Of a stretch of DNA of 64,000 nt, positions 17,647 through 58,500 are shown one piece after another; within the stretch, counting starts at the first letter, position 1, and every line of letters starts with the position of its first letter. This DNA comes from Calliopum simillimum (lineage: Eukaryota; Arthropoda; Insecta; Diptera; Lauxaniidae), in the NCBI GenBank assembly GCA_951812925.1, contig OX638370.1:37513948-37577947 (forward strand), in the 5' to 3' direction. A program made the position numbers and the translations under genes. The notes under the pieces were generated by a model that was not told the DNA's origin, did not search any database, and worked only from the letters and a program-made list of their open reading frames with translations.

Positions 17647-17649
17647 ACC

Positions 17650-18298: not shown

Positions 18299-18309
18299 AC
18301 ATGACAAAT

Positions 18310-19021: not shown

Positions 19022-19081
<60 letters not shown>

Positions 19082-20416: not shown

Positions 20417-21101
20417 ATACCCTACACCCAGGGTATATTCACTTTGTCCTTCCGTTTGTAACGCAGAGAAGGAGGCGTGGCAGATATGAAAAAGTATATG
20501 CATTCTTGATCAGCGTCACCTCCAGAGTCGATATAGCCATGTCCGTCTGTCTGTTTGGCTGGCTGGCTGGATTGAAAATGAGCGAAATCGGTCAACAGAC
20601 ACGCCTACCGCCCATATAAAATATATGTTCAAAACGCAATATTAAGAGTATTATTTTGCGATAACGCAAGCAAAATACACATAAATACTATGGATAGTAA
20701 ATACGAGCTCTGAGCGAAAACTAGGTGAATTCGGTCAAGAGGGCGTGGCACCTCCCATACTAGAAAAGTTCCAAAATGCTATAAAAGCGTTGAGATAATC
20801 CAACCAAATTTCACTAAAGCAGTTAATGCAAGCTCTGAGCAAAAAACTAAACAAACTCGGACAAGAGGGCGTGGCACCTCCCATATAAGTAAAAGATCCA
20901 AAATGCTATACTGAAAACATTTTTTGAGATAATGCAACCAAATTTCACTCAGACAATAAGAGCAGTAAGTGCATGATCTGAACAAAAGCTTTGGGAATTC
21001 TGAGAAGTGGTCGTGGCATCTCCCGTAAAAGGAAAATTTTCAAAATACTGCAGTGTATGGTATTTAATGTTTGGCCAGGCCAAAGGTAACACCATTACTA
21101 T
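20417..21101 (-). repeat. Dispersed 'GTGCCACGCCC' repeat, copy 6, minus strand
   Basis: The terminal hairpin ATACCCTACACCCAGGGTAT is on the left. Three modules carrying GGGCGTGGCACCTCCCAT follow, and the 5' end (GGCCAAAGGTAACACCATTA in this orientation) is at the right. Confidence 0.78.
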
Positions 21102-25687: not shown

Positions 25688-26560
25688 CTAGCAAGGGTGT
25701 TACCTTTCGTCTGGCCAAACATTAAATACCTTACACTGTAGTATTTTGAAAATTTTGCTTGTACGGGAGATGCCACGACCACTTCTCCAAATTCTCATAG
25801 CTTTTGCTCAGATCTTGCACCTACTGTCCTCAGTGTCTAAGAAAATTTGGTTGCATTATCTCAAAAAATGCATCCAGTATAGCATTTTGGATCTTTTACT
25901 TATATGGGATGTGCCACGACTTCTTGTGCGAGTTTGTCTAGTTATTGTTTAGAGCTTGCATCAACTGTTCTTAGTGTCTGAGTGAAATTTGGTTCGATTA
26001 TCTCAAAAAATGCTTTCAGTATAACATTTTCAAACTTTTTCTTATATGGGAGTTGCCACGCCCTTTTGTCTGAGTTCGCATTGTTTGGAGTTACTGCTCT
26101 TAGTTTCTGAGTGAAATTTTGTTGGATTATCTTGAAAAGCGCTTTCAGTATAACATTTCGAAACTTTTGCTTATATGGGAGGTGCCACGCCCTCTTGTCC
26201 AAGTTTATTTAGGTTTTTTTCAGAGCTCGCATATATTGTTTTTAGTGTCTGAGTGAAATTTGGTTCAGTTATCTCAAAAAAGCTTTCAGTATAACATTTT
26301 GAAATTTTTTCTTATACGGGAGGTGCCACGCCCTTTTGTCCGAGTTTGCCTAGTTTTTGCTCAGAGCTTGAGCCTACCGTCCCTAGTATTTATGTGTATT
26401 TTGGTTACATTGTCGTGAAAATACTCATAAAGTTTCATTTTGAATATATTTTTTGTATGGGCGGTAGGCGTGTCCGTTGCCCGTTTTTTCTCATTTTCAA
26501 TCCCACGAGCTAACTTTTACGACGAACCAACTGTACTAAATTTCATCGAGGTTAGTTTTC
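25688..26560 (+). repeat. Dispersed 'GTGCCACGCCC' repeat, copy 7, 3'-truncated
   Basis: It starts CTAGCAAGGGTGTTACCTTT and carries five modules, the most of any copy here. It breaks off after the GTGTCCGTTGCC block near 26560, without the terminal hairpin. Confidence 0.75.
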
Positions 26561-32770: not shown

Positions 32771-34646
32771 AAAAAACCGAAATATTTTTCTAATTTTTCG
32801 ATGAAAATGGAAATCAAATTACAAAGGTAGAATTTCAAGACAAATTTTATTGGACATTAGATGTGGATCTATTCAGAATCTTTTGCTATAAATCGTAATA
32901 ATCAATGAGTAACGCTTGAAACTCAATTTGAAAATAAAACGTGCAGTCAAAACAAGACAAATGTAAACAACTTGCATATGTAGTTATTGCAATTTACTTT
33001 TATATTGTATTTATGTAGGCACCTACTTTTAATGCTCTATTTAATATATGTAATAAATTTTTTTTTTAATTGGAAATTTTTATTTTTATTGTCAATAATA
33101 TGATTAAACTAGAAAAAAAGTAAATGAATAGCGTAATGCAGTATACTTGAACTTTGAACAACATAACACAAATTTATAACGTGATGATACCAAGTACCTA
33201 CGCAACATACTAAATGTCAGATGTTCTTTGAGCAAAGGTTTCATCTTTCAAAAGCCTACAAAAGTACTTCTTTATGAATATGATATGACATTTGTTTTAT
33301 AATGAATTGTATAAAGCTGAAGGTGTCCTTTTCAAAATCAAGCCTAAAGGTTACACCAACAAATTGTTAAATAAAGGACTAATGGACCCTATCTGTAACC
33401 TTTGGCAATAAAACTTCTTAGGAAATTAATTTTTTCTATTAAAAAACTGTTTTTTATCAAGTGCCTTTTGTTGTTTTTGAATTTTGATTAAACATTTTGG
33501 CTATTTATCAATACAATTGTTTTCAACTTTTTCGTTTGGTGTCCAAGCGAACTTTGTACATGCGGTCATCATGCGATTTTCTCTTAATTCTTTTACTTGA
33601 CATATTTAATGTGTGATATATTGAGTCTAAAGTTCACTGTTCCCGTTTTTTGTTGCGATTGTTTGATATTTTCATTATCTCTATTATATTGTTGTCTTTA
33701 GATATTTAATGCTTACCCATACATAAATATTTTTATGTGGAAAAAAAAGTGAATATACAGAGCAAAGGTTTTTGTTTTTTCATCCAACATTTGTGGAAAA
33801 TAAATCTAACTGGACTTTGGATAGTTATGCCATTCAATATATTTATTTATTTTTATTATGATTTTTTTTTTCTTTTTTAAGGAAGCAATAAACAAAAAAT
33901 GTCAGAGGAATTCTGTGTGGGTTCTGTTTTCATTTATTTGTTTTCTGCTTTAAATCATTTGCCAATTATTGCATAATTTATATATCAGCAAAATACACTT
34001 TTTATTAGTGTTGCTTTTGCTTCAACACTTGCCAAATTGTCTGTCTGTCTATCTGTGTTTGTATCTGCGATATGTATTTTTGTGTTGATACCACTTACTT
34101 GATTCTACCTTTATGTTATTGTATTTGTTATGTAAATATTTGATTCAAGCAAATTAATTAAATTATAAAATTGCCAATACAGCGCCATCTACAATTTAAA
34201 TAATGTGTTTATTTTGATTTAAGGCTGTAAATGTGTTTATTTTTGCATTATTCTTTTATTTTTGTCCTAGGTCAGGTGAACTTTTATTTTCTTTTGATTG
34301 GCATTTTTATTTAGAAAAAAAAAAAAACAAAAAATCTGCTTTTCTTTTTTTTTATACAACGTTATTTTTAGTTATTTAATTAAAAAATAAGAAAATATAT
34401 TGCCATTCTATCATTCATGATGAATTTGTCGTTCACACTATCTGCCGGCTTTTTCTATTTTCTCTCGGCTTGTGCTAATTTTATGTTTAATAATAACTTT
34501 GATATTTATAGTAATTTATTTTTACTTTAATTTTTCAGTTTTTAAAAATAAGCCTGTTCCACTTCTTCAATATTTTAAACTTTTCCCATTGATTGGTGCG
34601 ATAAAATTTAAAGTAATAAGTATCGAGCCAATTCGGCGCACAATGG
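32771..34646. other. AT-rich, nothing recognised
   Basis: Unique-looking sequence without ORFs of note. Confidence 0.5.
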
Positions 34647-34654
34647 GAGATCGT

Positions 34655-36168
34655 CAGTGGCGGATCTAAGTAATTTTCCGCCCTAGGCACTTATTTTTTT
34701 GCCGCCCCCCTTCAGATTTTTTTTATAGTAAAAGAAACTTATAATAAAAACAAAAAAATAGGTTACATTAACACTTTAATTATTTGTATGTTAAAATACA
34801 TCATACATTAAAAAATTTTTCGTCTAATTTTGTTAATTGCAAATTGGTGAATAATAAATATCTTCACAACCTATTTCAAGCAAAATATCTTTTTCTATTG
34901 TTAAAATAGCAATATAATTTTTGACTCGCTTTAGAACAGAGAAAGACATTTCAGCAGTGGAATTGGAAATTGGTGTACATACGCACATTGTACACGCAAT
35001 GTCAATATTTGGGAATAATGTGCAGAGATCATTTCTCCGAAGAATTTGACGCAAATCCTGATGCAAATTTTGTATTAAAGCTTTTTCAGCACAATAAGAC
35101 TTGAACTGGAGAAGTTCGTCACTTAATGATTTTTCTAAATCTTCAGGAAAACTTTTTCGTAATAGTTCAGCTTTTTCGCGTAGTTCATTGTTTCCCAAGG
35201 TTGCCATATCTATTAGACCGCCCAATTTTTACAGAGCTTTCACATATGACACAGGTCTTATTTTGAAATCACAGATCAACTGATCTAAAATTACATTGAA
35301 TGTAAAAATTCTGAAATTATCGCTGCCACTAGTTTCCTCATCTCTTGTTTCACCAAACTGCAATGCACACGTTCTTTTTCTTGAAGAAACTGTTTTGTAT
35401 TCCTTAATGACAGATATCTCCTGAGCTTTTTTTTTCGTAAAGATCAAATTCGTCACGAATAGCTTGAATTATACTGAATAGGCCATCGTACAGTTCAACC
35501 ACTTTCCCCAGGTTTGTTTTGACACCTTGCAAGATCGTGCTAACGGCGTTAACTTTTTTTAATACAAAATTCCATATACACAAAAGAAATGGTGTTTCTA
35601 ATTTATTTCTTATACCTTGAGCTTCACATCGTACCTCACCTTTTTCCTTGGAATCATTTTCAATGGCTTCAAGAGCCGACTATCGCTCGCGGCCGCATAA
35701 TTCATTGTCACGAATTCCCGTGATAAGAGTTCTTAAGCTTATAATCATTTGGTCTTGTAGAAGAATATCTATTTCAATCACTCATTTTGCCGCCCCTACA
35801 GTTCATTCTGCATTTGATAAGAGTTCTTGAGCTTATATTTCTTTGGTCTTATAGAACAATATGTATTTCAATCACTCATTTTGCCGACCTGGGCATTGAG
35901 TAAACTTTTCTTAAATATCCTTTATATTCGTCTTAATTTAACCGAATGGTACACTACATGGTTGTTTTTAATCGGTTAAGTCATCCATTCGTATTGCTTA
36001 AATAGTGCCGAATTTAAATGTTTTTCGAAGTACCATTTAGGTAAAATAAAATCAAGTTCAATACTTAAATTATAAAATTTTTTTTTATCACTCCAAAAAT
36101 TTGCCGCCCCACAAAATCTGCAGCACTAGGCAGGTGCCTACTGGTGCCTTAGGGTTAATCCGCCACTG
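34655..36168 (-). mobile_element. Decayed hAT transposon with 8-bp target duplication
   Basis: The terminal inverted repeats begin CAGTGGCGGAT. The exact 8-bp target duplication GAGATCGT lies at 34647-34654 and 36169-36176. The 1514-bp element holds a decayed transposase on the minus strand and has probably lost the region for the N-terminal zinc-finger part. The sequence outside rejoins cleanly when the element and one target copy are removed. Confidence 0.93.
34833..35560 (-). pseudogene. hAT transposase, C-terminal part (ZMYM1/DUF4371-like), broken
   Basis: The minus strand encodes VSTILQGVKTNLGKVVELYD and AIRDEFDLYEKKAQEISV, then the KRTCALQFGETRDEE and FTFNVILDQLICDF blocks, and ends with the dimerisation domain TPISNSTAEMSFSVLKRVKNY. 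This order is that of hAT transposases with a DUF4371 core, such as those related to ZMYM1. Lesions: a frameshift in an A-run near 35435 and an in-frame TAA at about 35229. The catalytic DDE residues of the N-terminal half are not recognisable. Confidence 0.82.
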
Positions 36169-36419
36169 GAGATCGTGGTAGGTAAAATTTGTTTTGGTTT
36201 AGTTGCACAGTGGGCTCAAAGTTGGACTTAAAATAACAAAACTGCTCTATAGAACTTTTTACATTAGAAAGTACTAGATAAACGCTCTCGTTAGCCGGAT
36301 GCACTTATGTAGCATATCGTTAGAAAGTATATTGTTTCTTTTTTTCAAATATTAAAATAAAAAAAAATGGAAAAACTGCAAACTTTGACAATAATAAAAA
36401 AAAATGCATCTTCTGATTT

Positions 36420-36870
36420 TCATTATTTTTCAATATAACATGTGGGAAACTATGCTTAAACGAATGCAAAGTCCCTGCTACCCTTTTTTGATAACTTTTT
36501 TTATGAACTTTTTCATATTGTAGTTTTTGACGGGACAAAATGAAGTGGTGACTTTTTTGGAACGCTATTTTTAATTCGTTTGCATCGATTTATGTCAAAA
36601 TAGCATTTTGGCAAAAAGTGCAAGCATTTAGCTTTTAAAAAAATATTTGCTTGAGTTTTTATATATAAAACGTGAATTATGGAGATTTTTCGAGCTCAAA
36701 AAACCAAAATCGATAAATTTTGAAAACTTTGATATTAAAAAAAAAAAAAAAATAATACAAATTTTGATACTCGTAATTTTCCAATATAATAATTGGCCAA
36801 GTATGCTTAATCGAAATGCAAAGTCCCTACTGCCTTTTTTGAGAATTTTTTTTCTTTATATTCTTTAACG
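36420..36870. repeat. Direct repeat of ~85 bp, ~350 bp apart
   Basis: TATGCTTAAACGAATGCAAAGTCCCT (in part) recurs at 36805 as TATGCTTAATCGAAATGCAA, in both cases after TTCAATATAA and before TTTTTTGA. Confidence 0.7.
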
Positions 36871-36959
36871 TTTTACAATAGCTTACAGTCTGCTTAAATT
36901 CGGAAGATGCTTATTTTTAACGAAAGGGTAGTAGGTAAGGGGTATATTTCACCCCTTTC

Positions 36960-37842
36960 AGCCCCTTGGAAATTGCCCTCTCTTTACTTGGACATACCAT
37001 AGCGAAGCATTTTACCAAATCTTATAACAAATTTTATTTTTGTAGGGCATGGCACTGCCCATTTTGCCAATTGAAAATTATTTCTCCAAATGCCCTTTGC
37101 ATATGTACCAGATTTTGTCTATCTACGTCAAGCAGTTTCTGAGATATGATGAATCAGCATTCAGAGGGGCGTGGCACCGCCCACTTTTCTAGTGAGAACT
37201 ATTTGTTCTAATTGTCTTAGCATATGTATCCAAATAAACCTAAGTGCGCCAAATATTGTTAGAGAAATTATGAACTTATTTTTTTGAGGGCGAGGAACCG
37301 CCCATTTTTCCGGTGAACATTATTTGTCCTGATGATTTTTACATATTTACCAAATCTCATTTATCTGCGTCAAATAGTTTCGGTGATATGATAAGTTAAT
37401 TTTTTGGGGGTGTGGCATCGCCCACTTTTTTAAGATAAAACTTAGCCTTTTTGTACTAACACAATGTAACAACTTCTTTAAAAACGGTTAGTTAGTTTCC
37501 GAGTCAATAAGGGACAAATACACAAGCAAACAAAATATAGTTTTTATAAAGTAGATTTTCGTTTATTTCGCATAACTTCAAAATTATAAAAGATACCTCA
37601 GAATTTTTAACATTTTTGAAATCATTGGGGTCAAGTTATTGGAAATTGATACCCATTTTGAAAAAAATTCCGACCACGCCCCAACATTGTATGGGAGGTA
37701 GGCGTGTATGTCGGCGGATTTTGTGCATATTCACAGATTTTTATTATTTTAATGTAAAAAACATTTGTAGAAAATTTTAATAGCCTAGCTCCATTATTAC
37801 TATATGTGACCGCCGTTCCATACGAACCCTCCCATTGTGCGG
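36960..37842. repeat. Dispersed 'GGGCGTGGCACCGCCC' modules
   Basis: Four ~125-bp units centred on (T/G)GGC.TGGCA(C/T)(T/C)GCCCA at 37030, 37160, 37290 and 37410. Each is followed by 'accaaat...gtcaa.tagtttc.g(a/t)gatatgat'. Similar in plan, not in sequence, to the GTGCCACGCCC repeat. Element D entered its right end. Confidence 0.7.
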
Positions 37843-37847
37843 CGGCG

Positions 37848-38897
37848 CACACAGGTGCCAATCGAAGTAAAAGCTGGCCAAAATTGTTATTCTGCAGGTA
37901 AACTTTTGAAAATCAGTTTTTAGGCACTAGGGATAGTGCGTGCAACTTTTGAGTAAAAATAAGTTGAGTTCGGACAAGGGGGCGTGGCATCTCCCATATA
38001 AGCAAAAGTTTAAAAGTGCTATACTGAAAGCGTTTTTTGAGATAGTCCAACCGAATTTCACTGAAACACTAAAGATGATAAAAGCAAGCTCTCAACAAAA
38101 AGTGGGTGAAATCGGGCAAGGGGGCGTGGCACCTCCCATATTAGCAAAAGTTTCAAAATGCTATACTAAAAGCGTTTTTTAATATATGCCGTCTAAATTT
38201 CACTCAGATACTAAGAATATTAAATACAAGCTTTGAGCAAAAAGTAGGCAATCTCAGACAGGAGGGCGTGGCACCTCCCATATAAGCAAGTTTAGAAATG
38301 CTATACTAAAAGCGTTTTTTGAGGTAAGCCGTCCAAATTTCACTGAGATACTAAGGATATTAAATGAAAACTTTGAGCAAAAGCTAGGCGAACTAAGAAC
38401 TAAGCAAAAAGTAGCACCCAATTTTTTCACCAATTATAGAAAAATCATTTGACAAAAAGACCCCGTTGTCGCCAGAGTGGAACCTGGTGGAACTTTTTTT
38501 GTAGCTCTATGACTCTCCAATTTATATCTCTCGCAGCTAACCTTGCATCATGTATTCAAAAAACCACTAATATTTCCTAATTTAGTATCGATTATCATTA
38601 TTTACGTACCGCGGGGGTGTCCTCCTTACTATCCAATGACGTTTTTAACATTCTTTTGTTTTGGAAACTAATAACAACGCATACAATATTACTCTTGCAA
38701 AGAAGAAAAAAAAATCTGTGCTAGGAACTACGACTTTGCGTTAAGGTACAAGAGAGCCAACTTGATATTACGTAATATTTCAAACGCCAAATCATGCGCT
38801 GGTGTTCTCTTTACAAAGCTTGGCTGAAAAAATAATCAAAATCGCAAGTCGATTTCACGATTTTTGGCCAGCTTTTACTTCGATTGGCACCTGTGTG
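37848..38897. mobile_element. Transib-type non-autonomous element D
   Basis: The terminal inverted repeats match perfectly over ~36 bp, starting CACACAGGTGCCAATCGAAG. The 5-bp GC-rich target duplication CGGCG lies at 37843-37847 and 38898-38902. The CAC...GTG ends and duplication size fit Transib. No transposase is present; part of the interior is dispersed-repeat modules. The intact termini suggest this is the youngest of the four. Confidence 0.75.
37925..38400 (-). repeat. Dispersed 'GTGCCACGCCC' repeat modules, copy 8, inside a Transib-type element
   Basis: Three or four minus-strand modules with GGGCGTGGCACCTCCCATAT lie within the element at 37848-38897. Both repeat ends are missing, so this is either a decayed nested insertion or an array that became part of the element. 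Confidence 0.7.
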
Positions 38898-38902
38898 CGG
38901 CG

Positions 38903-39699
38903 GGGAATAACACTTAATGAATTAAAAAAACAAAATTAATGCTTATTAATCGTAATGAAATATCGCTCAAACAATATGAAATAAGTTCCATATAAAAACG
39001 AAATAAATCCCAAAATTGAGTCTGTAAATGTTAAAAGGACGAAAGTCATGAATTTTGACATGTTGGTTTTTTTTTTTTTGCAAATTCCTAATGCTAGAAA
39101 ATAGCTCTATCGTCTTGTGTTATAATAGAGCCAGAACAAATTTTCCCTTGTCTGTACAGCGTCTTGAAATATCGGTTTTTTTTTGCTAAAAGAACGGAAG
39201 TCATGACTATTTAACTTCATGAAATTTTAACAAATAACAAACTTCATACTGCAAACAGGTAACTGGCAATTTTTTTAACAAAGCTATAGTGTAATATTGA
39301 AGAAAATGACCTCCAAGAATTTATTAAAAGTTTTCGAAAATGGCGGAGATATAGGAAATTGAATTTTGAAGGATATTTTTGTTTGAGAAGCTATAACTTT
39401 AGTTCTATTTATCCAATTTTAAAGTTTATGGTCTCAAACCATTTGCTTTACAGTAAATTAAATTTAGTTAAGCCAAAAGTTTACAAAAAAAAAAAAAAAA
39501 AATGTTTTCCCAAATCTTACACTTCAAAAAATTTTTTAGATTATATTTTTGGAAATAATTCATTTTTATTTTTTGTTCAAAAAGCAGCTTTAAGTGTGAT
39601 CTATAATTCCTCTACGAAAGTGATTGCAACTGTGATTCTGATTCCATAATGATTTTATTTCCAGACCCTCTTGAATGGGAAGAATTTCTATAAATCTGT
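38903..39699. other. AT-rich spacer between Transib-type elements D and A
   Basis: No gene; poly(T) and poly(A) tracts. Confidence 0.5.
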
Positions 39700-39704
39700 C
39701 GTCG

Positions 39705-40592
39705 CACAGTGCTGTCACTCCATACAACGGAACGGCATTTCCACAGTTTTGGTTCGATTTCAATGAGATTTACCATACTGATACATTTTTTTACGTTGTT
39801 TTCAGAAATGCAATTAATTTTCAAATGCAATGAATAGAAAAAGAGATATTCAAATAAATAAAACTTCGAATGTTAACTGGAAAAAATGTTTGCGCATGCT
39901 TTTAGGCTGTAAAAAACCATATAAAATTTTAATAGTTCAATGTGTTTTTGACATATAAAAGTATGCTGTAAAAAAAAATCAAATTTAAAAAAATTCAAAA
40001 GCATTTGAAAAAAATTTTGTGGTGTAAATTTTATAAAATCATTGATTTTTACGTAGATACGGGATATTCAGATAAATATTTAAAGTAAACGGGGAAAAAC
40101 GGGGTTGTGAATTTTTCCTATCTTAAAATATGGAATCTGTACTATTTGTACGTTTAAGAACAATGCCCGCAAGTCCCGTCTTTTTTTTTCCTGCTCTAAA
40201 GAAAATTAGCATTTTCCGGTTTTCAATAATTGAAAAATTTTTTTTATATCTTTTAAAATAACTTTAATTTGGCTAATCAAATTGGCATACAAAAAATATT
40301 AAAAATAAATGAGTATGTAGGCTTTCGTATGCATTTTTTTTTAACAATTGCTTTTGAGGTTTAGGAGCAGCAATTATTTTTAAAAAGTTCTGCGATTAGA
40401 AAATTTTCTTAAATGTTTTTTTTTTCGAAAAAAAGTTCGACTTTAAAAAGCTGTAACACTTACAAATCACACTAGTTTTCAAAAATTTTCAGGGGATTTC
40501 TTAATTGGACTATTTGCTTTAGAATGGCATAAAAAAAATTTTAAATTTGAACAAAAAATTTTTACGCAAATGCCTTCTATCGCAGCACTGTG
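39705..40592. mobile_element. Transib-type non-autonomous element A
   Basis: The ends are CACAGTGCTG and CAGCACTGTG, with GGCATTT shared a little further in. The 5-bp duplication CGTCG lies at 39700-39704 and 40593-40597. The 888-bp interior is AT-rich and non-coding. CACAGTG is also the heptamer of V(D)J recombination signals, a likeness known for Transib ends. Confidence 0.72.
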
Positions 40593-40597
40593 CGTCG

Positions 40598-41649
40598 CAC
40601 AGTGCGAAATTTGAGAAGTTTAGCGGAACTTTATTCAATTATTGGAATACATAAAATGCGTAAGATTATTCATTATTTCAGTAGCTTAATATCCCACCTC
40701 AAAAACCTCATACTCAGTTTGGTGAAAAACCCTGCCAAACAACTGCAAAATGCACCTAAAACTTGCATTACTAATTCAATCATACTTTTTGCTTATTAAA
40801 AGCTTTTCGATTTGTTAAAGTTAATAGAGTGGTACATTCAAACGGTAAGTCAGTAGGCCGCGAAATTTTTATAATTTTTTTTTTAATAAAATTTTCACTT
40901 GTTGGCATTCAAATAATTGCAAAATCTTTTCTTACTCGTATGTGATTTGTTTGTGAAAATTGTGCTTTTTAAGAAGTTCATAAGATTAACATTTTCAACT
41001 TCATTGGATACTTTAAAAGGTGTTACCACAAATTGCCATTTTGAAACGTACAAAATTTGAAAGGTAGGTTTATCCTCTACTAGAAACACAAAACATCTTT
41101 TGCGATATTTTGCGATCTTCTTTTTAACTAAACCTTTTCCAGAATGTCTTTGGAAATTTCATATAACACCGAAATTTCATGAAAAACCGACATCGGACGC
41201 CATCGTTGGTTTTGTTTTGGAAAAAATAGGCTCACCAACACTAACATCTGACACTCTCCATAGTTTAAAGGTAACTATTCGTGCGCTAGTTCATAATATA
41301 CTAAAAAGTAGGGGGAATCCTCTCGAAATTCAGAAGCATTTCTGAATAAAAATGCAAGAAATAGCAAATACCCCTTGTCTTACCCCCTTCATTTTTTATG
41401 GTGTTTTGATAAGAAAATATTTTTGTCTATCAAGTTTCATAGCGATATCTGGTATGGGAGCAGAAATACAACGTTTTAAGCATTTTCATATATGGGGGGT
41501 ATAATAACCCCTTGTCTGATCCCCCTTAATTTTTGCATAGTGTTTTACCAATTAAATATTTATCTAAGTATTAAGTTTCATAACTATAACTGCTATATGT
41601 GCTGAGATATGAATTAAGTTCCGCTAGACTCTGAAAATTTCGCTCTGTG
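40598..41649. mobile_element. Transib-type non-autonomous element B
   Basis: The ends are CACAGTGCGAAATTT on the left and AAATTTCGCTCTGTG on the right, with AGCGGAACTT also matching inside (~35-bp inverted repeat with mismatches). CGTCG flanks both sides (40593-40597, shared with element A, and 41650-41654). The interior holds two ~140-bp modules with CCCCTTGTCTTACCCCC and CCCCTTGTCTGATCCCCC. Confidence 0.75.
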
Positions 41650-41654
41650 CGTCG

Positions 41655-42111
41655 GTTGAATTTTGTTCCCTCTGATGATATTGTTTCTAATGATTTGCTC
41701 TTGATTTTTACAGTTTTGAAAAATATAATATAAGTTTCTTAATTCTTACTCATATGCTGACCATGTCTTCTAGTTGAATTTTTGCAGTAAAGGTTCCTTT
41801 AAATGAAACATGATAGTCCAAGTAGTTTTACTATATTTTTATCTTGATTTTGTTCGATGTGGGCGTTTAAAAAAAATTTTTCGTTTTGTTATTGTGCTTT
41901 TTTATTTTTATATTGTACAATTGGCTTTTTACATAAATTTTCATTTTACATCACATGCCATAAGTTATATTTGAATACACGTGTTTATGTTTGTGAAGCA
42001 TTCAAATAGGAACATATACATATTTATGATATAATATTTTAGAACTCATTTTGCTTTCTTGACATTGCTCACCAATCATATTTTGTTTCTTTCTTAATTT
42101 TATATTTGCAG
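41655..42111. other. Intron end just before the Acsl start-codon exon
   Basis: Unique sequence between element B and the exon, ending in a good polypyrimidine tract and acceptor. Confidence 0.6.
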
Positions 42112-42316
42112 AAACTATAACTTAAAACAGTTTAACATCAACAGGAAGAAAAATCGTCATTAGTCATCTTACTCGTTTGTTGAAATTTACTGGAAAATCT
42201 ACAACATATAAGGGAGTCTTCTATAGTGTATTAAAACAAATCCAATAACTCTATTTAGTTCATATTTTGTGAAGGCAAAAGTACAGCTTAAAGATGTTTA
42301 TCGAAGATGATGCACA
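42112..42316 (+). other. Acsl: Acsl exon with 5' UTR and start codon
   Basis: A pyrimidine-rich tract ending TATATTTGCAG precedes position 42112, and the donor GTAAGT follows 42316. The exon carries 182 nt of 5' UTR, then ATG at 42294 and codons for MFIEDDA plus two bases of Q8. Joined to 52473 it reads DDAQMESFWVQ without a break, which is why I accept it. An acceptor at its 5' end means at least one more upstream non-coding exon exists. M9, at the start of the next exon, is an alternative start if another 5' exon is used. The exon sits between two Transib-type elements. Confidence 0.85.
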
Positions 42317-45277
42317 GTAAGTATTGCAATTTTGTCAAAATTTTGTATAAATACATTTTTTAATTTGGTTGTGGTTTTTTAATTATACAAAATTTTATTT
42401 ACATTTTCGACATTTTTCATGCATATTCCATTTGTTTTTTTATTATTGTTAAAAATTTTCTTTTTTGTTGTCAAAATTTGATTTTTTTAAGTTTATTTTT
42501 GTTTTTGTGCTATGTTTTGGCCTATACAATCTTGTTTTATATATCTATATTGTTTCTTTTTTTAAGTTTTAGATATAAGCAATTACATACTGCCTTTGCT
42601 TAAAAAAAAAAAAAAAAAAAAAAAAAAACAATAACTTAAAGAGTAGAATATCAGCTTCTTGAAATCTTTCTTCCAATCGATATAACTGTCGCACAGTCCC
42701 AAAGTGTGTTTTTTATATCAAAATTTTTTGCCCGCTTTGGGACACACTGTAGAAAGATTTCAATAATAAGGGTTTATAGGTAATTGAACAAGGAAAAAAA
42801 TAAGCCACCGGTTTTTGGAAAAAAATCGTTTCGACCTCTTTTCTGTGGGCTCAAAGTCGAAAAATTGAAAACCGAAAATTTTCAGAATTCTACCATTCGA
42901 AAACCAATCATCCGATTTTTATGATTTTTTTTTTAATGATTAGATATCTTGCCCTTTAAGGTTTTTAAAAACTTAATTTTTCAAAATTCTTTCGGCTTCG
43001 TCCGGTATAATAAAACCCTTAATAACTCGAGAATTATTGTTTCGATTTGAGTGATTTTTTTTTTTTTTTGTGGATAGGTATGTTGCCTAGTAAAGTCCTG
43101 TTATAAAATTTTTTCAAAAGTCTTTCGGCTACGTCCGGGAAGATAAAAATCCTAATAACTCGGGAAACACTGAACTGATTCGGGTGATTTTTTTGTTAAT
43201 GGTTAAATACGTTGCCCGGTAAGGTATTGTAAAATTTATTTTTCAAAATTCCTTCGGCTTCGTCCGGGATATTAAAAATCTTAATAACTCGAGAAACATT
43301 GAACCGATTTGGGTAAATTTTTTTTTGGTGGATACATATGTTTTCTAGTAAAGTTTTATAATGTATTTTTTTCAAAAATACTTTCTGCAACGTCTGGGAT
43401 AACAAAAACCTAAAAAAATTTTTATTAATTTTTTTTTATTATGCAAATATCGTATTCGGTTGAACCCTTTCCTTTATTCAAACCGTTGTCACCTCGATAC
43501 GTATCGAAAGTTAGGTAACGAGGTGCAATTTATTTTATTTTTTAATATCGCTGAAGTCACCGAAGGAATTTCCGAAAAGTGCATATGACATGGCCTTACT
43601 AAGAAATATATCTACCTATCAAAAAACAAAAATCATTCAAATCGGAACAATTGTTCCCGATTTATAAAAACTTTTCAATTTACCGGACGAAGCCGAAGGA
43701 ATTTTGAAAAAATAAATTTTACGAAACCTTGCCGGACAACGTAATTACACATTAGAAAAAAATCAACTAAATCCGTTCAATATTTTTTGAGTTATTAAGA
43801 TTTTTAATATCGCGGACGAAGCCGAAGGAATTTTGAAAAAATAAATTTTAGAATACCTTACCGGGCAACGTATTTAACCATTAACAAAAAAATCACCCGA
43901 ATTAGTTCAGTGTTTCCCGAGTTATTAGGATTTTTATCATCCTGGACGTAGCCGAAAGACTTTTGAAAAAATTTTATAACAGGACTTTACTAGGCAACAT
44001 ACCTATCCACAAAAAAAAAAAAAAAATCACTCAAATCGAAACAATAATTCTCTAGTTATTAAGGTTCTTATTTTGCCGGACGAAGCCGAAAGAATTTTGA
44101 AAACTTAAGTTTTTAAAAACCTTAAAAAGCAAGATATCTACCCATTAAAAAAAAAATCCATAAAAATCGGATGATTGGTTTTCGAATGGTAGAATTCTGA
44201 AAATTTTCGGTTTTCAATTTTTCGACTTTGAGCCCACAGAAAAGAGGTCGAAACGATTTTTTTTCCAAAAACCGGTGGCTTATTTATTTTTTGTTTAATT
44301 ACCTATAAACCCTCATCATTGAAATCTTTCTACAGTGCGTCCCCAAGCGGGCAAAAAATTTTGATATAAAAAACACACTTTGGGACCACTGTGTGTCGCC
44401 GAATAGTACTCTCAGATTGGGAGTTTTTTTTAGTAACACTGGAAAATAATTTTTTTTGGCAAGTTTTGGGGAATAAATTTTTCGAGTGGTCCATATACTA
44501 TTTTTTTAACAAAGTTAAGGCCATTTTAAGATAACATCAGTAAATTCAAATATTGTACTTTATATCAAAATAAGGACTACACTAAATTTCTGTTTTTGAA
44601 TTTAATAATCTAAAATGGCCATAATTTTGTAATCAAAAATAGTAGATGACCACTCGATAGCTCAGACAAATTTCGTGCGCCCTTTCTGTTGTTGTCGGCA
44701 GACAGTTGCCTGTGAGTAGTGATAATCAAAATAAGTCTTGGTCTTGAGTCTTGTTCTTGGTAATTTTGCGAGACCAAGACCATGACCAAGACGCTGATAT
44801 TTTTGCAAGACCAAGACCAAATCTGCTATGGTCTTGGTCTTGCTCTCGATAATCGTCAAGACCAAGACTGCTTTTCAGTCTTAGTAGTTTATATAAAATT
44901 ATATATGTATAAATCATCTCTCAATTTGTATTTTGGCATCTTAAAAACCCAACTGCTTTGGAAAATATGGTTTTGAAATTTTGAATACTCAATATCTCTG
45001 AAAATTTTTTCAAGACCAAGACCAAGACTTAATGAGCAAGACCAAGACTTAATGAGCAAGACCAAGACCAAATCAATTATGTCGGTCAGTCAGTTAAACC
45101 TTAGAACAAGGCTGGTCAGCAGCCCCGTGGAAGGTAAAATACTTTTTTTTTTCTCAAGAGGAAGGCATCTTACGAATAAAGTGTTCATGGCATAAAGTTC
45201 TTAGAATCGTTCAAGGAATACATGTGATTTTTTATTTTTCTGAAAATTTTTTTAAAAAGTTTCGTTAAAAATTTATC

Positions 45278-48300: not shown

Positions 48301-51300
48301 ATAATAAAAATATAATATTTTGAGCAATTTTTGCTATCTTTTTTTGACATTTTTAAAACACTTAATTGCTTTTTTTTCTGGGAAATCGAAATAGAAATAT
48401 CTTGGGTGATATTACCTAAAGGCATTTACAATTATGTTTCAAAACAAAACTTATGCAATTTATGTGTATATATAACGTTAAATAAAATGATCATTATCAA
48501 TAAATATGTATGGACTGAACTGTCCATTTTCGTACCTATCTATGCACGTAGACTAATGCACTATGTTGAAATAAAAGCTTTTCCTTATCACCTATACGTT
48601 TTATTTTTATAACTATCACCGAGTTCGATAAGAGAAATTAATTAAATTTACAAAACTTTATATTGCCATTACTCAGTAACGTATTTGTATCCCAGTAAAA
48701 AATAAAATAATGGTCAAACTGTACGAATTTGAGTCCTGAAAACTAACATATACTTATACTTATGTTCCTTTCTCGATTTTATAGCCGATTTTGGAGGCTT
48801 GGAACCTCCTATTTACGATGCTGAACTTTTTTTTCTATCATGTCAGGATTCTGAGTTTTCCGTGCTTCAAAGTGCAGAAAAGCTGTCTTCTTGTCAAATT
48901 CGTTCATAGTCGGCTAAATGACTGACCATTAGGGTGTCTCTTATTTGGGAAAAGTCAAAATTTGATGTCGCGCTCCCCCAGAATCGAAAGACTTTGAGAA
49001 AAAAATGAGATCCCCTAAACGACAGTTGAGAAAAAAATGAGATCCCCTAAACGACAGTTTTTTTTTAAACGAATTGACCAGTGCCACGAAGACATTCAAA
49101 TTTAAATGAAAATTAACATTGATTTTATATACTTCTTGTTTTAACTTGCTGGGAATCACGTTGCTTGAAATATTTTTCGCCATCAAATGTGTATCTAATT
49201 GTTTTCGGGTCGCTGAACACGATACAAGTGTCAAAATTAAATTTTGACAGCTGATTTCAAATCAAAACACCGAGAAATGGAGGTTAAACCGGTAGCTTGT
49301 GTTGACACGTGTAGCCGTTGACAGCTGTCAAAATTTAATTTTGACACTTGTATCGTGTTCAGCGACCCGAAAACAATTAGATACACATTTGATGGCGAAA
49401 AATATTTCAAGCAACGTGATTCCCAGCAAGTTAAAACAAGAAGTACATAAAATCAATGTTAATTTTCATTTAAATTTGAATGTCTTCGTGGCACTGGTCA
49501 ATTCGTTTAAAAAAAACCTGTCGTTTAGGGGATCTCATTTTTTTCTCAAAGTCTTTCGATTCTGGGGGAGCGCGACATAAAATTTTGACTTTTCCCAAAT
49601 AAGAGACACCCTACTGACCATAGTAGTATTTTTCTCAGGAGTTAGTAGGTTAGTAGAAGGTTTGCAAAATCAGTTAACAGACTGTCCGTTTACTCCCAGT
49701 TTTTGCAAGTTTTTACCCCAAATCTCTCGTTTACGCATAAAACGTACACAAACGAGAGCTTTTCGGGTAAAAACTTGCAAAAACTTGGAGTAAACGAACA
49801 GTCTGATAACACTGTTCGACAATTTCGAAAGTTTTTACCCCAAATCTCTCGTTTACGCATAAAACGTACACAAACGAGAGCTTTTCGGGTAAAAACTTGC
49901 AAAAACTTGGAGTAAACGACAATTTCGAACTTTTTGTAAAACACATCAGAAAATCCAAAAAATTCTAAACATAGACGTCGAAAAAAATACCGTGTCTCGT
50001 GGTTTTTCACCACCACGTCACATTTTTTTTTTTAATCGATTTTTGAAGTTTTTAACTCCACTGTACCTACATGAAGAAAACAAAAATAGCAAATCGTTGT
50101 ATTTAACTATATGATCCTTACATCTGAGGTGCATCATGTGTTCAGCAAACTTATTCAGAATATCACGAGGAATATTTTTGTAGAAAACTTTAACCCTCTA
50201 CATCCCCCACATATGGGGTCATTTATACCCTTTTACTAAAAAAGTGCAAAAATGACACCTAAAATGGGAGAATATTGAGTCAATATGTACCACATAAATA
50301 TTTGGTATCAAATTTCGAAACTAGTTGCTGAACACTAAAAAGTCGAAATATCATCCCGAAAGCCAACAAATCGTTCAAATCAATGAGAACTTCTCACATC
50401 GCATATTTATTACATCTCTGATGCACTTTCCTTAAGTTATAAGCATTTTTCGTCTTAGGTAACTCTTTGTGAAATTTTTCGTAGAATATTTTTGTAGAAT
50501 AATTAAACCCATTGTAGTCCGGTTTTTTTTTCACCCACTGTAAAACTCTAAACTAAATTTTTTTTAAAAATCGTTGTCCTAAGATCATGACGAAGTCACA
50601 CAATGAACATTTTCCTAGAACTCATTAACCCATTATATCCTGTGTTATAAGTCTTTTCAACCCCCTTTTTCCAAAAAAAAAAAATAAATAAAAACTGTGA
50701 TACAATGAATAAAAGTATTATACAACGGAAAATTTCATTAGGAGTCACCTAAGACAAAAAATGCTTAAAGCTTAAGGAAAGCGCAATGAAATTTGGTACA
50801 CTGCTTCCATCATCAAAGTTAGCTCGTGGGATTGAAAATGAGCAAAATCGGTCAACGGACATGCTTACCGCCCATACAAAAAATATATTCAAAATGCAAC
50901 TTCAGGAGTATTTTTCACGACAATGCAACCGAAATACACATAAACATTACTGAAAAAATACTGCGCAAATTCGGACTAGAGGGCGTGGCAAAAGCTTCAA
51001 AACGCTATACAGAATTTCATTATGCTGTACTGGAAGATTTTTTTGAGATAATCGAACTAAATTTTACTCAAATACCAAGGTCTATAAATGCACGCTCTAA
51101 GTTAAAACTAGACGAACTCGGACAAGGAGGCGTGGCATCTACTTTATAAGCAAAAGCTTCAAAACGCTATACTGAAATCGTGTTTTGAGATAATCCAACC
51201 AAATTTCACTCAGACACTAAGAACTATAAATGCAAGCTCTGAGCAAAGACTGGGTGAACTCAGACAAGAGGGCGTGGCACCTTCCATATAAGCAAAATTT

Positions 51301-54300
51301 TCAAAATACTGCAGTAGTTATAGGGTATTTATTTTTTGAGCAGACCAAAGGTTACAGCCTTACTCGTTTTTTTGTTGGAAAGGTTATGAGGAAGAGCAGT
51401 GCATAGGACTATATTTGTTTTAAAGTGGGCGGTGCCACGCCCCTAAATGGAAAAAACGTTCTCCCGGCTAAACCACTGCAACGATTTCTTTGAAATTTGG
51501 CGTGGAGTTTCTATGAAATTTGGTGTGGAGATAGGATTAGCAGTAAGGAAAGATAAAATGACCATTATGTTTTTCAGTAGGTGGTGCCACGCCCCTAAAT
51601 GGTATAATATGCGATACGTGCTAAACTGCTGCACCGATTTCGAGCATTATCTGACCATATTTGACACCTTTAAGTAAAGTTTCCGTAAAAACAGAGCCCA
51701 ATTTATTTTAATTTCTAACAATATGGTAGTTAATTTACATTATAACATTACTTTTGCCTCACCTGTACACTTCTTTTCAATTAACAAACTGACTTGTCAT
51801 TAGAAGCGTAAAATTTGAATTTCGTTAGTTTCTTGATAACACTTACTGGGTAATTTTTCGAAGAAACGCGGCAATTTTATCAGCATTTTTAATCACGTCT
51901 GTTGTAAGCATAATAAATCAACTAAAACTCTTCAATATACTTGTATTTTTTTTTTTTAATTTTCTTATCACTTTAGTGACGTCATAAAAAAATATAGTAA
52001 AATTTCAAATTTAACAGGCTATTTAGTTTGTTAACAAAACTTTTTAAGTTTAATAAGTCAGTTTTTATTTTGCAGTAAACGAGTTAACTTGAGAACAAGG
52101 CAGGTGATATTAATTTGTAGACAAGAAAACTTTCTTAGCAGACACATTTGCTATATAATTTTTTTTCCGAATTCGGGGCATATTCATAACAATGTAATGA
52201 AACATGGGTCACGCGTAAGAATTGTTTGCCTTACTTTTGAAATAGTTTTAGTTTGGAAAGCAAAGCTTCATCTAATGGCCATACTTTATAAATAGTGCAA
52301 CAAAAATCTTTTATATATGGAAGACAATTTGTTCTTGAAGCGTCACTCATTTTACAGTTTTTTACACATATTTTTATTAGGTATATTTCTTTTTAATTAT
52401 ATCTCTTCTACTTAGTCTTAAGGTCATTTTTTATAAAACTGAAAAAAATGTTTCTTTTAATTTTTTTTTCAGGATGGAAAGCTTCTGGGTACAGAGTGCT
52501 ATCGGTGCCATCAAAGCTTTTGCTTTCGTTTGCGATATAATCACGTTACCAGTTTATTTGGTATTGCAAAGGCCATGGAAACGAAGGCAAGAATCACGCA
52601 GTGTTAAGGTGAGTAATGAGTTATGAAGCAAGTGCATAGTATTACACATAGGATGAAACTGTATTTTTTTTGCCGCTTGAATTTCTTTTACTGCTAATTT
52701 TATTCTTTTCAAATACAAATGCTATTTTTATGACAAAAATATAACAGCAGTGTTCACGTTCCTGAGCAATTGGTCTTGCAAAATGACAAATAGCAAATGT
52801 TTGCAATCACTTGTGAGCTATCTTAAAAGTATAAACATTGTATGTTATCTATTTAAAATTTTATTCCTCTGATAAAATCGTGTGATTAAAAAGGGAGCGT
52901 GGGCGTAAGCAACAAATTTTTACCTAAAAAATCTGTGTTGCAAATGCATGACATATTTATGCCATAGGTTAACAGTTGCGTAAAATGATAATAAATACAA
53001 AACTACGTTGGGCACTACTTATATTTCGGGAACTGGCAACACTAAGGTCAATAGCTAAAATCTGGCAACACCATAATAAAGTTTGACATTTTTTTGCATA
53101 AACGTACTCACAACGTTTTGATGTACAAGTGCTACGTGTATTTGTTTTGTTTACAGTGAGTTAAGAAAATCAATTTGGCGAAAAAATGGAAATTTCAAGA
53201 AAAGGTTTTCGTTGGATTATTTTTCACAACTTTTGACGTGGATTATGTCAATAAGAATGTGTCGATGAACTCAGTTCTTTATACGGCGTTAAATCACCAT
53301 CAAAAACCACAGCATATGGGTGGTATAGTGAATTCAAACGTGGACGTAGTTCGGTCGCTGACAAATTCCGTGAAGGTTGTCCAAAATCGGTTGTTGTGCC
53401 ACAAAACATCGATACACTGCATGAACTTATAATGCAAGATCGTCATGTAGTTGATGCTTTCACTTCCATTGAGTTCTCCAGGGTTCTGTTCCATATTTTT
53501 AACGTTAACTTTCTGTCTTCGACTTCAAACCCAATCCATTCCTTTGCTGATGACAGTAGCATTCATATTGCTATAAAAGCGAGTTCTGCTGGGGTTGAGA
53601 TTAAAATACAGCAAATGAATATCTCAATTCAGAAAATATTAATATGCTTTTAACACAACTCGAGCTTTAGTTTTTACTGTATAAAGTTGTAAGTAACAGG
53701 TTTGCTCTTGTCCGAATTCGCTCATTTTCCAACTAAAGCTGAACTATGCCATCCCTAGCGATTGATCGACATTTAGTTCTAACGGGTGATCCATTAAGAG
53801 CTTCCTACTTTGTTTTCTAAATAAAATACATAAAAATCAATGTATTGATGCAAATCTTTATTTGGAATGATAGTTCGGTTCCTAAAACTCAATATTTAAA
53901 TATTATTTCTTTCAAATGTTGCCCACGACTAGCTCTTAAATGGTTCATTCTGTGTGTCAAATTTTCGACAACTCTTTCAATCATATCGGGCGGTATCAAT
54001 TGAATAACAAGAGTTATGTTGGTTTCCAAAGCGTCAATAGTTTCGGGTTTGTCGGTATAAACAAGTGATTTAACATATCCCCAAAGAAAGTAATCCAATG
54101 GCGCCAAATCACATGATCTTGGTGGCCAATTAACAGGAGCATTTCATCGAACGTTTCCCTCAATAAAGCGATTTTTTCTCCAGCTGTATGACATGTTGCG
54201 CCATCCTGTTGAAACCAGAGGTCGGCTACACTTATATCCTGAATTTTTGGCAACAAAAATTCATTGCTCTGTAGCAAGCACCATTGACCGTAACACAGGC

Positions 54301-55536: not shown

Positions 55537-58500
55537 TTTTATTTTTATTAATTTTTTTTTTTTTTATTTTTAAATCCTTAAATGCAGTTAAACATTTTCT
55601 GTGATAAAAATTCGCTTGTATTGTGCAAATTGCATTTTGCTATTGTTTTAATTTTGTTCGTTATGTGAAAATCGTATGATCTTTGTAGTATTTTGCTGTT
55701 CGTCATTTTGTTGTTGTTTTTCTTGACGCTGTTGTGTTTTGAAGCTCAAAGTTTCGTATCTGAGAAAGTTCAAAGTTTTGATTTGTAAGTTTTTTTTTTG
55801 TTTTGACAGCTGTTGTAAGCTGAAAGTTCAGCTTATAATTGCATCTGTTTGAACTTTGTTATCTATTTATTTTTTTAATTTTTTAGTCTCAAAGATTAGT
55901 TTGTTAACACAAGTTAAGTTCGTAGGTCCAATCCCAAGTTCGAAATTAATAAGCATTAATTTATAACACGAATGCACTTTCAACATATTGCATTAATACG
56001 TACAATATGGTCAAGGCTTTCTAAAGTGTGTGCTTCGGATATTCAAAGTGTTTGCATTTTTAAAAAAAATTTATGAAAGTTCTATTTGAAGGTAGCACGC
56101 TCTATAAACACAGCAAAATATCAACTCAGCTATTGCGAGTATAAATTGAAGGCCATCTGTTTAAAATTGCGTCAAAGTAAACACCGTTTAATAGTTTTCT
56201 TTTAAAGTTGATGGGTTTGTTGAAAAAAGTAGTTATCAAACAATAATTTCATTCAAATTGCTGCTTCGACTGGCGTGTCAACCCAATTTTTTGGTATATT
56301 TTCAATGGTTTAAAGCTCTATGTCACTAATAACCCCACCAGTATTGTGTTTATTTGCCTGAATCATTGCTTGATTGTCAGCATAACATCGAATTTTAATG
56401 GTGCCACACACTGCGTCAAATCGAAATTCCACCCATGCGCCAAATGACGTCGCTCATTAACACGGTTCATTAGACAAATTTTGGACTTTGAGCGCAAAAG
56501 ATCGATCATTGCACGGCTTGTCTATCACTTAGTGCCATTCCGCTGAAACCATACCACGTCTAATTCCTCGATTTCTTGCAAAAAAAAAAAAAAAGAGTTC
56601 TCATGCATGCGTCTGTTTCACCTTCTATTGAGCATTATATTGCCTTTTTAATTTTCGAAGAAGAAATGAACCAGAATTGCTCCATCGCGTTGTTTATTGC
56701 GATAATATCCTAATCTAAAAGCGGTAACTTTTTCATCCATAAAACTGAAAGTACCAGTCTTTCCCCTCAAAACCCAATTTAAATTACATATATCGATTTC
56801 TCTTTTTTCATTCGAAACATCTTATACTAAAATAAAGAAAAAATTAGTTTTTACCATTTTTTTTAACTTTTTTTGGTTAGGATATCTCCGAGAAGAAAAA
56901 GGAACTAACGGTATAGTTCAAATTGGGTTTTGAAGAGAAAGCCTGGTACTTTCAACGACCATACCAGGTTTTATTGCTGAAAAGTTACCTTGTCTTCTTA
57001 TGTATATCGTTTCAAAAATAGCGAAATGTTGTAGCTTTTAGGTTAGAATATCTCAAAAACTAAAAAAATAAGTTACTGGATGGGCGTAATACGTCAACGG
57101 ACACGCCTACCTCTTAAAAATTCGTGATTCCCAAATGTATGCAACACATTATTTCCATATGAAATTATTGTACTTACATGAAAATTTGCATGATCTTTTT
57201 CAGAAAATTTATGAGTTTTGCAATTGGCTTAAATATGTCAAAAATTTTTTAACTTAAATTGAAAGAGTACTTTCTCACCTTAAATTTTTTTAAAGTTAGA
57301 AAATGTATCTAAACCAAGGGTGTCAGCGTAGAACAAAAGTGAGCCAATTTTGGCTCGACACCAAAAACATCAATATTTCTGTACAACATTCACAGAAATA
57401 ATTTTTGTTGTTTTTTTTTTCACGCTCGTCAAAATTTCGCGTTTTTGTTGCTTTTTTGCGTACACGCAAATTCGAACTCGAACCAACATAAAACAACAAC
57501 AACGACTACGTCGCATCAAAATCAAAAACAACAAACAATATGGGTATTAATGCGTTGATGCGCAGTTGCGAAAATGCAAGTCTTTAACGCACTAACGATG
57601 TTTTACAAATGACAAACTTTCGCAAACCGCATTTTCACAACGACGCAAGAGCATTGCGCATCAACGCGTGAATGCCCCTAATTTTTGTGTGTGTCCCAGT
57701 TCTAAGAAATTTTGAAAATTGTTGAAATATTATTGTTGTAAACGAAGCATGAAAAAACAACAAAAAATTGTTTTTGTGATTGTTTAATTCGAATTTGAAG
57801 TTGTTGTAATAGCGAAAATTTTGCGCTGACTGCGCTGCATGCGCTTGGCTCAGTGATTTGAAAACGCTGACACCCTTGATCTAAACGTAGCTAACTTATT
57901 AATTTTTCAAGGAAAATTGCAAACGCTGGATTTTAAAGATTCATTTTGATTTGAGCATATCTTTTAAAACATTTATGTAATCCAAATAATTTTTTCTATT
58001 AATTAATAACAAAATACTAAATTTCAATTAAAATTAATCAGTTTCACATGTAGAACCTTAAAGAGATTTTGGCTAATTTTTTCGAAGAAAAATATGACTT
58101 TTTAGAAAAAGTGCCTATTAACGGCGGCACTTTCCTAGCTAAACATATCTTTATAAAACTGCATTATTAGATTTTTGAAATTAAGTGGGCGTAAAAATTG
58201 ATTTTATTTCCGCCAATATACCACTATGAATCGCCACATTATGATATCTTATTTGAACATAAACATTATACTTCTACATAAAATACAAGGTCTGCCTATC
58301 TCTCTGTCTGTGTCTCGAGAACCATTCGTCCGGTTTGCATGATTTCTTCTTTCCTTTATAGATATTTTGCATGCCAAGGTTTTAGGATACCTTCGGCTTC
58401 GTCCGGGTTCTCCGAAAATCACATAATTCAAAAATCAGTTATCCGATTTACATGATTTTTTACTTTCGAAGACATGCTATCAGGTGAGATTCCAGGACAA

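What the first reader, a model, noticed from the sequence alone, without database searches (positions are those of the whole stretch)
37843..44398. Cluster of four Transib-type elements within 6.6 kb at the 5' end of Acsl
Seen: four elements with CAC...GTG inverted ends and exact 5-bp GC-rich duplications: CGGCG (37843/38898), CGTCG (39700/40593 and 40593/41650) and TGTCG (42687/44394). All fit xGxCG. Known: Transib elements make 5-bp GC-rich duplications and have CAC-starting ends resembling RAG recombination signals. Inference: a Transib transposase active in this genome targeted this site several times. None of the four encodes a transposase, so they were mobilised in trans.
Basis: partly seen in the sequence, partly recalled or inferred. 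Interest (0 to 1): 0.8.

Follow-up and report, generated by a model that had tools for sequence, protein, structure and literature searches.

The report
Five RAG-like Transib transposons clustered together
Next to a fly gene sit five different defective transposons of the family that gave rise to our antibody-shuffling enzyme RAG1; each duplicated a 5-letter CG-rich target when it jumped in, two pairs landed on the same or overlapping targets, and the same genome still holds long open reading frames for the RAG1-like enzyme that moves such elements.

Summary
The four elements are real, with exact 5-bp duplications; a fifth (E0, 34639-37839, CGGCG), with a hAT transposon nested in it, abuts the first. 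Each has many relatives in the window's own 690-Mb genome. Of copies read at both ends, exact 5-bp duplications occur in 8 of 9 (E0), 26 of 33 (E1), 21 of 21 (E2), 10 of 10 (E3, sampled) and 10 of 10 (E4, sampled). The pooled target consensus is CGNCG, the site reported for Transib; strict xGxCG does not hold genome-wide. E3 has the ends of a 3081-bp element, matching it at 92% and 77% over its two parts; that element's 683-codon frame matches solved transposase 6pqn at E = 4e-118. So E3 is a deleted Transib; E0, E1, E2 and E4 are Transib by ends, duplication and target, with no parent found. Abutting insertions sharing one CGNCG recur elsewhere. More novel, on the side: two end-to-end fusions with no base between, like RAG signal joints. 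The cluster is a new member of a known kind.

The parts
34634..34638 (.). target duplication of E0, left copy, CGGCG
34639..37839 (.).
   Evidence: genomic copies with the same boundaries, 8 of 9 with exact 5-bp duplications
34655..36168 (-). hAT transposon nested inside E0 (8-bp duplication GAGATCGT, ends CAGTGGCGGAT, decayed transposase frame); not part of E0
   Evidence: hAT label rests on ends, 8-bp duplication and a recalled motif; Pfam gave no match
37840..37847 (.). CGGCGGCG: right duplication of E0 (37840-37844) overlapping left duplication of E1 (37843-37847)
37848..38897 (.). E1, Transib-type element with 36-bp identical terminal inverted repeats; shorter than its family (about 1.6 kb)
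37973..38389 (.). three 142-bp tandem units inside E1, also found in other repeats of the window that resemble mini-me/DINE-1
   Evidence: mini-me label partly recalled
38898..38902 (.). right duplication of E1, CGGCG
39700..39704 (.). left duplication of E2, CGTCG
39705..40592 (.). E2, young non-coding Transib-type element, ends CACAGTGCTG
40593..40597 (.). CGTCG shared by E2 (right) and E3 (left)
40598..41649 (+). E3, internal-deletion derivative of Transib family D (orientation as in D)
41061..41342 (+). open frame in E3 holding a remnant of the start of the family D transposase
41650..41654 (.). right duplication of E3, CGTCG
42687..42691 (.). left duplication of E4, TGTCG
42692..44393 (.). 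E4, foldback Transib-type element; about 83% complementary to itself over its length; left end lacks 3 bases of the family end CACAGTGGTCCC
44394..44398 (.). right duplication of E4, TGTCG

Best explanation
The five elements are non-autonomous DNA transposons of the Transib superfamily. A RAG1-like transposase made elsewhere in the genome bound their CACAGTG-type ends, cut them out and joined them to a 5-bp staggered target preferring CGNCG (mechanism inferred from known Transib chemistry). Each insertion duplicates the 5-bp target, so a good target survives, doubled, and can be hit again; this is how E2/E3 (one shared CGTCG) and E0/E1 (overlapping CGGCGGCG) came to abut. Shown here: boundaries, 5-bp duplications and a GC-rich target in all five families, a pooled CGNCG consensus, many genomic relatives, transposase-bearing elements with long open frames, and the parent family of E3. 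Inferred: movement in trans, which transposase moved E0, E1, E2 and E4, and the order of insertion.
For: Exact 5-bp duplications in 8 of 9 E0, 26 of 33 E1, 21 of 21 E2, 10 of 10 E3 and 10 of 10 E4 copies. Pooled 67 duplications of E1-E4: C 51, G 50, N, C 51, G 52; the 8 of E0 are CGCCG x3, CGGCG x2, GGACG, CCGCG, TGGCG. CGNCG is given as the Transib target in PMC4735498 and PMC5704228 (passages). PF12940 (RAG1), at the loose limit E <= 10, rings at 68 places in this genome (best E 0.0018, one over the curated cut-off) and in 0 of 14 control genomes. A Transib protein from the genome has 73 matches at E <= 1e-5, with open frames of 670-692 aa in several families. Family D (L089:144-3224, duplication CATCG) has E3's ends; E3 1-758 and 768-1052 match D at 92% and 77%. 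D's frame matches PDB 6pqn over residues 182-663, E = 4.2e-118; family A's at 7.7e-88.
Against: No transposase-bearing element with the ends of E0, E1, E2 or E4 was found, though ends of only some families were read. E1's end CACACAG matches CACAGTG at 5 of 7 only. E1 has 7 of 33 copies without an exact duplication and 7 of 40 loci without both ends. In the E3 sample, which left out CGTCG copies by design, position 4 is C in only 4 of 10. RSS-like nonamers are not convincingly present: the 12/23 spacer pair ranked 1 of 1891 in the five elements, but 159 of 5000 sets of random CACA pairs did as well, and on eight other Transib ends (two of them D's, which resemble E3's) spacer 12 ranked 25 and spacer 23 ranked 2 of 50.
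Confidence: 0.95

Rival explanations
1. The elements are hAT5-type transposons (hAT families with 5-bp duplications), since E0 contains hAT-like coding sequence.
For: hAT families with 5-bp duplications exist (PMC12730594, passages); hAT-like frame inside E0 (motif recalled).
Against: The hAT inside E0 has its own ends and an exact 8-bp duplication, so it is a later passenger; the left ends of 9 other E0 copies run through that place without it. E3 shares its ends with a RAG1-like transposase gene.
Confidence: 0.03
2. The clustering reflects a true insertion hotspot (for example open chromatin at a gene's 5' end) or a single burst rather than re-use of rare CGNCG targets.
For: Five elements in 9.8 kb and none by the same criteria in the other 54 kb of the window. 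Abutment is uncommon: 1 of 150 ends of fetched copies has a neighbour heptamer at gap 5.
Against: The window was picked for the cluster. Families differ in age: E2 copies 0.8% and E1 copies 2.9% from their consensus, other E3 copies 95-100% identical to the window's, long E4 matches 82-93%, E0 matches 79-91% over their main piece; these are the best-scoring copies only. Abutting pairs occur elsewhere: of 50 listed (of 89) heptamer-to-heptamer sites 13 have a gap of exactly 5, 9 of these with CGNCG between, against 26 over 19 other gaps and 11 at gap 0. The gene's 5' end was not verified.
Confidence: 0.3
3. The abutting pairs are composite elements that moved as one unit.
For: E2+E3 could be read as one 1945-bp unit flanked by CGTCG.
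Against: 17 of 20 other E2 copies and all 10 sampled E3 copies lie between duplications other than CGTCG; E1 and E0 copies likewise have many different duplications.
Confidence: 0.02

Closest known systems
Transib superfamily (Transib1-5 of Drosophila, Hztransib of Helicoverpa zea)
   Same: CAC-starting inverted ends, 5-bp duplications, CGNCG target preference, RAG1-like transposase in the genome with E = 4e-118 to the solved structure 6pqn (its identity as Hztransib is recalled; the tool calls it a putative DNA-mediated transposase)
   Different: all five are non-autonomous; E4 is a foldback; E1 carries 142-bp tandem units shared with another repeat class; E0, E1, E2, E4 have no parent identified
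TransibN1-N3 non-autonomous elements of Anopheles gambiae (named in a passage of PMC8355894)
   Same: non-autonomous Transib elements with RSS-like heptamers
   Different: the 12/23 spacer asymmetry reported for those was not supported here for spacer 12 on other Transib ends
V(D)J signal joints and episomal hAT circles (PMC2803484, passages)
   Same: end-to-end fusions of inverted ends with no base between, as in L152 and L151
   Different: here in an assembled fly chromosome and between Transib ends; how they formed is not shown

Membership tests
Transib superfamily | inverted ends starting CAC, RSS-heptamer-like | tested here: met
   CACAGTG exact at 4 of 10 ends of E0-E4, the other six match it at 5 or 6 of 7 positions; CACAGTG at the ends read of families A, B, C, D
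Transib superfamily | 5-bp target duplication | tested here: met
   8/9, 26/33, 21/21, 10/10, 10/10 for E0-E4; lengths 3, 4, 6, 7, 8 exact in 0 of 33 E1 and 0 of 21 E2 copies
Transib superfamily | CGNCG target preference | tested here: met
   pooled consensus of 67 duplications from E1-E4 and the 8 of E0; weaker in the E3 sample, which left out CGTCG copies; reported target in PMC4735498 and PMC5704228
Transib superfamily | RAG1-like transposase, own or of a parent with the same ends | tested here: met
   met for E3 only: family D
Transib superfamily | transposase-bearing parent with the ends of E0, E1, E2, E4 | tested here: inconclusive
   not found among the ends read; E4's end shares its first 11 bases with family C's and 16 of 20 with an end in L051; most of the 73 protein matches had no ends read
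Transib superfamily | nonamer-like motif at a 12- or 23-bp spacer | tested here: inconclusive
   weak for 23, not supported for 12
hAT5 (hAT with 5-bp duplications) | hAT transposase belonging to the element | tested here: not met
   the hAT frame lies in a separate nested element with its own 8-bp duplication
CACTA/EnSpm | 2-3 bp duplication (recalled) | tested here: not met
   duplication length is 5

The most novel reading that the evidence does not exclude
Transib transposases in this fly not only insert elements but also join element ends to each other without any base between, leaving RAG-style signal joints in the chromosome. Two cases: L152, two 1017-bp copies differing at 1 base joined head to tail, outer flanks CGTCG and CGCCG; and L151, an E2-like copy joined to another E2 copy only 83.5% like it over the aligned part, so it is not a simple recent duplication of one element. 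Together with CGNCG chains like the one in the window, the genome would be a natural record of V(D)J-like chemistry outside jawed vertebrates.
Probability: 0.35. Interest if true: 0.75.

Novelty: new member of a known kind. Interest (0 to 1): 0.42.

Why it matters
Transib is the living relative of the ancestor of RAG1. A genome with several long open Transib transposase frames, many young non-autonomous substrates, insertions that share one CGNCG, and candidate chromosomal signal joints offers natural material for asking how RAG-like enzymes choose targets and whether they join ends the V(D)J way. For the window alone the lesson is modest: a preferred target that is duplicated at each use can make clusters of unrelated insertions without a chromatin hotspot.

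Tried and rejected
hAT origin of E0: rejected once the hAT inside proved to be a nested element with its own 8-bp duplication. Worry that E0's CGGCG was part of the element, because many genomic alignments ran to the last query base: rejected, flanks diverge right after CATTGTG and duplications vary. 12/23 RSS-like asymmetry: looked strong in the five elements, failed for spacer 12 on eight other Transib ends, dropped. Gap-0 heptamer palindromes as signal joints in general: 9 of the 11 fetched match no known end at better than 20 of 30, only 2 kept. The overall count of CACTGTG-N0-20-CACAGTG sites is not enriched: 89 against 298 for the pattern read backwards; only the gap-5 and gap-0 classes stand out, in the 50 sites listed (first in contig order, not a random sample). 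Pfam on 33 of the frames, the nested hAT's included, gave no transposase (best E 0.0033, unrelated families). No match to the E1, E3 or E4 ends in IMG/VR or, for E1, in GTDB contigs. Full lists for gap 5 and gap 0 could not be obtained.
Full report
What is there. The four elements exist at the stated coordinates with exact 5-bp duplications. A systematic scan of the window for CAC...GTG inverted ends with equal 5-bp flanks brings out a fifth, E0, at 34639-37839 with CGGCG on both sides, directly left of E1. E0 is 3201 bp long because a 1514-bp hAT-like transposon with an exact 8-bp duplication (GAGATCGT) lies 16 bases inside its left end; without it E0 is 1679 bp. The cluster therefore spans 34634-44398. 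Against 200 dinucleotide shuffles, xGxCG-flanked pairs number 7 (5 elements plus 2 cross-pairings) versus a mean of 0.025 and a maximum of 1.

Copies in the genome. The window lies in a 690-Mb assembly of 334 contigs; from its repeats and genes it is a fly (inference). Each element belongs to a repeat family. First-look candidates number 11253 (E1), 1136 (E2), 713 (E3), 803 (E4) and 4851 (E0), of which the tool scores only the best 40, so young copies are over-represented in what follows. For E1, 33 of 40 loci gave both ends and 26 of these 33 have an exact 5-bp duplication; the 7 others differ at 1 to 5 positions. For E2, 21 of 21, window copy included. For E3, 10 of 10; I chose these among the 40 listed from copies whose alignment stopped short of the query's own CGTCG, so CGTCG is excluded by design, while 12 other copies align across both CGTCG flanks. 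For E4, 10 of 10, chosen from 40 listed; two of these share the same flanks, GCCACGCCC...CGCCCTCTTG, apparently one repeat used as target twice. For E0, 8 of 9; the miss is TGTCG/CGTCG. With boundaries fixed at CAC, lengths of 3, 4, 6, 7 and 8 fit 0 of 33 E1 and 0 of 21 E2 copies; since 20 of the 26 exact E1 and 17 of the 21 E2 duplications are not CGNCG, a shifted boundary with a shorter duplication is excluded too.

Target. The 67 pooled duplications of E1-E4 read C 51, G 50, any, C 51, G 52. The preference is the symmetric CGNCG, each fixed base kept about three times in four; exact CGNCG makes up 6 of 26 (E1) and 4 of 21 (E2). CGNCG is named as the Transib target in PMC4735498 (passage) and in a table of PMC5704228 (passage).

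Transposases. The RAG1 profile PF12940, at E <= 10, rings at 68 places of this genome, mostly over profile positions 530-640 (best E 0.0018, one place over the curated cut-off), and in 0 of 14 control genomes; alone this is weak. A 638-aa stretch from one of these places finds 73 matches at E <= 1e-5, several with open frames of 670-692 aa. Two of these proteins match PDB 6pqn at E = 4.2e-118 (family D) and 7.7e-88 (family A). Family D (L089) is a complete element, 144-3224, duplication CATCG, with a 683-codon open frame and with E3's ends; E3 1-758 matches D 144-910 at 92% and E3 768-1052 matches D 2968-3224 at 77%. E3 is thus a Transib with its middle deleted and keeps a remnant of the transposase start in the frame 41061-41342. 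Ends read for families A, B and C start CACAGTGGCGAC, CACAGTGGGGTA and CACAGTGGTCCG; none matches E0, E1 or E2 closely. E4's family end shares its first 11 bases with family C's, and L051, a locus with transposase remains, has an end 4 mismatches in 20 from E4's; these are leads only.

How the cluster formed. E2 and E3 share one CGTCG; E0 and E1 use overlapping CGGCGs in CGGCGGCG. An insertion at CGNCG leaves two copies of it, so the site can be used again. This recurs elsewhere: an E3 copy abuts family B through CGCCG (L087) and two other Transib ends abut through CGCCG (L049); an E1 copy, one of the 7 without an exact duplication, abuts a family-C-like end through CGCTG (L033); an E0 copy abuts an unknown CACAGTGG end through CGCCG. 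It is uncommon: of 150 ends of fetched copies, 1 has a neighbour heptamer (6 or more of 7) at gap 5, 1 weak one at gap 0, and 0 at gaps 1-4 and 6-15. A search for CACTGTG-N0-20-CACAGTG finds 89 sites, fewer than the 298 of the pattern read backwards; among the 50 listed, 13 have a gap of exactly 5, 9 of them with CGNCG between, and 11 have gap 0, against 26 over the other 19 gaps; the window's own E2/E3 junction is one of the 13. Of 9 gap-5 sites fetched, 4 have one side matching a known family end at 24 or more of 30, none both sides; two further end types occur twice each among them (L142/L150, L145/L148). Ages differ: E2 copies are 0.8% and E1 copies 2.9% from their consensus, other E3 copies are 95-100% identical to the window's, E4 copies 82-93% for the long matches and E0 matches 79-91% over their main piece. 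So the cluster probably built up over time and was not a single burst; whether the place is also a hotspot cannot be told from one window chosen for its cluster.

RSS-likeness. CACAGTG, the RSS heptamer, is exact at 4 of 10 ends. A nonamer search seemed to favour a 12/23 spacer pair (rank 1 of 1891, 0 of 83 permuted nonamers as good, but 159 of 5000 sets of random CACA pairs as good; rank 2 without E1; an earlier form gave 75 of 5000 shuffled nonamers and 21 of 5000 random CAC sets). On eight other ends, two of them D's, which resemble E3's, spacer 12 ranked 25 of 50 and spacer 23 ranked 2. I do not claim 12/23 asymmetry, although PMC8355894 reports it for some Transibs (passages).

Side result. 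Of 11 gap-0 sites fetched, 9 match no known end at better than 20 of 30 and 2 are precise Transib end-to-end fusions. L152 holds two 1017-bp copies with 1 difference, joined head to tail with no base between; outer flanks CGTCG and CGCCG. L151 joins an E2-like copy (82% to E2 over its main piece) to an E2 copy (94%) the same way; the two are 83.5% alike over 631 aligned bases. This is the structure of a RAG signal joint. It may come from excised circles recombining with a resident copy, from cutting and joining of two neighbouring ends, from other tandem duplication, or from assembly error. My searches for Transib with head-to-tail or signal joints (listings, plus passages of PMC2803484, and PMC8355894) showed no such report; subscription papers are mostly not held, and Kapitonov and Jurka 2005 was not available, so what I know of it is recalled.

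Verdict. A confirmed, enlarged cluster of non-autonomous Transib elements: new members of a known kind, with a likely clustering mechanism and one side observation that deserves its own test.

Noticed in passing
L152:2214-4247 (C2:73153000-73159450): Two 1017-bp family-C-ended elements, 1 mismatch apart, fused head to tail with no base between; flanks CGTCG / CGCCG. Looks like a RAG-type signal joint.
   Followed up: partly
L151:1-1845, junction at 962/963 (C1:126463400-126465330): Right end of an E2-like copy fused without any base to the left end of another E2 copy; the two are 83.5% alike over the aligned part.
   Followed up: partly
window 586-807, 9214-9409, 16203-16613, 18383-18878, 20607-21049, 25730-26406, 51015-51310: Repeats similar to the roughly 142-bp units inside E1; several look like mini-me/DINE-1-type Helitron elements (core motif recalled). 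E1 seems to carry part of another repeat class.
   Followed up: partly
window 48930-49613, 57315-57878, 62477-62753: Three further short inverted-repeat elements with 8-bp duplications (CTGACCAT, ATCTAAAC, TTGATAGT), probably hAT-type.
   Followed up: no
window 16966-19472: Large inverted-repeat structure with Tc1-like coding remains (17640-17975, family recalled, no Pfam or NCBIfam match) and a mini-me-type repeat nested inside it.
   Followed up: no
window 12533-13782: Long inverted repeat of about 1.25 kb with many exact 11-bp matches between its arms.
   Followed up: no
C1:28446547 and C1:76423110 (L113-L114, L121-L122): Two E4 copies inserted at the same CGCCC inside what looks like the GGGCGTGGC motif of the 142-bp repeat, suggesting that repeat is a recurrent landing site.
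   Followed up: no
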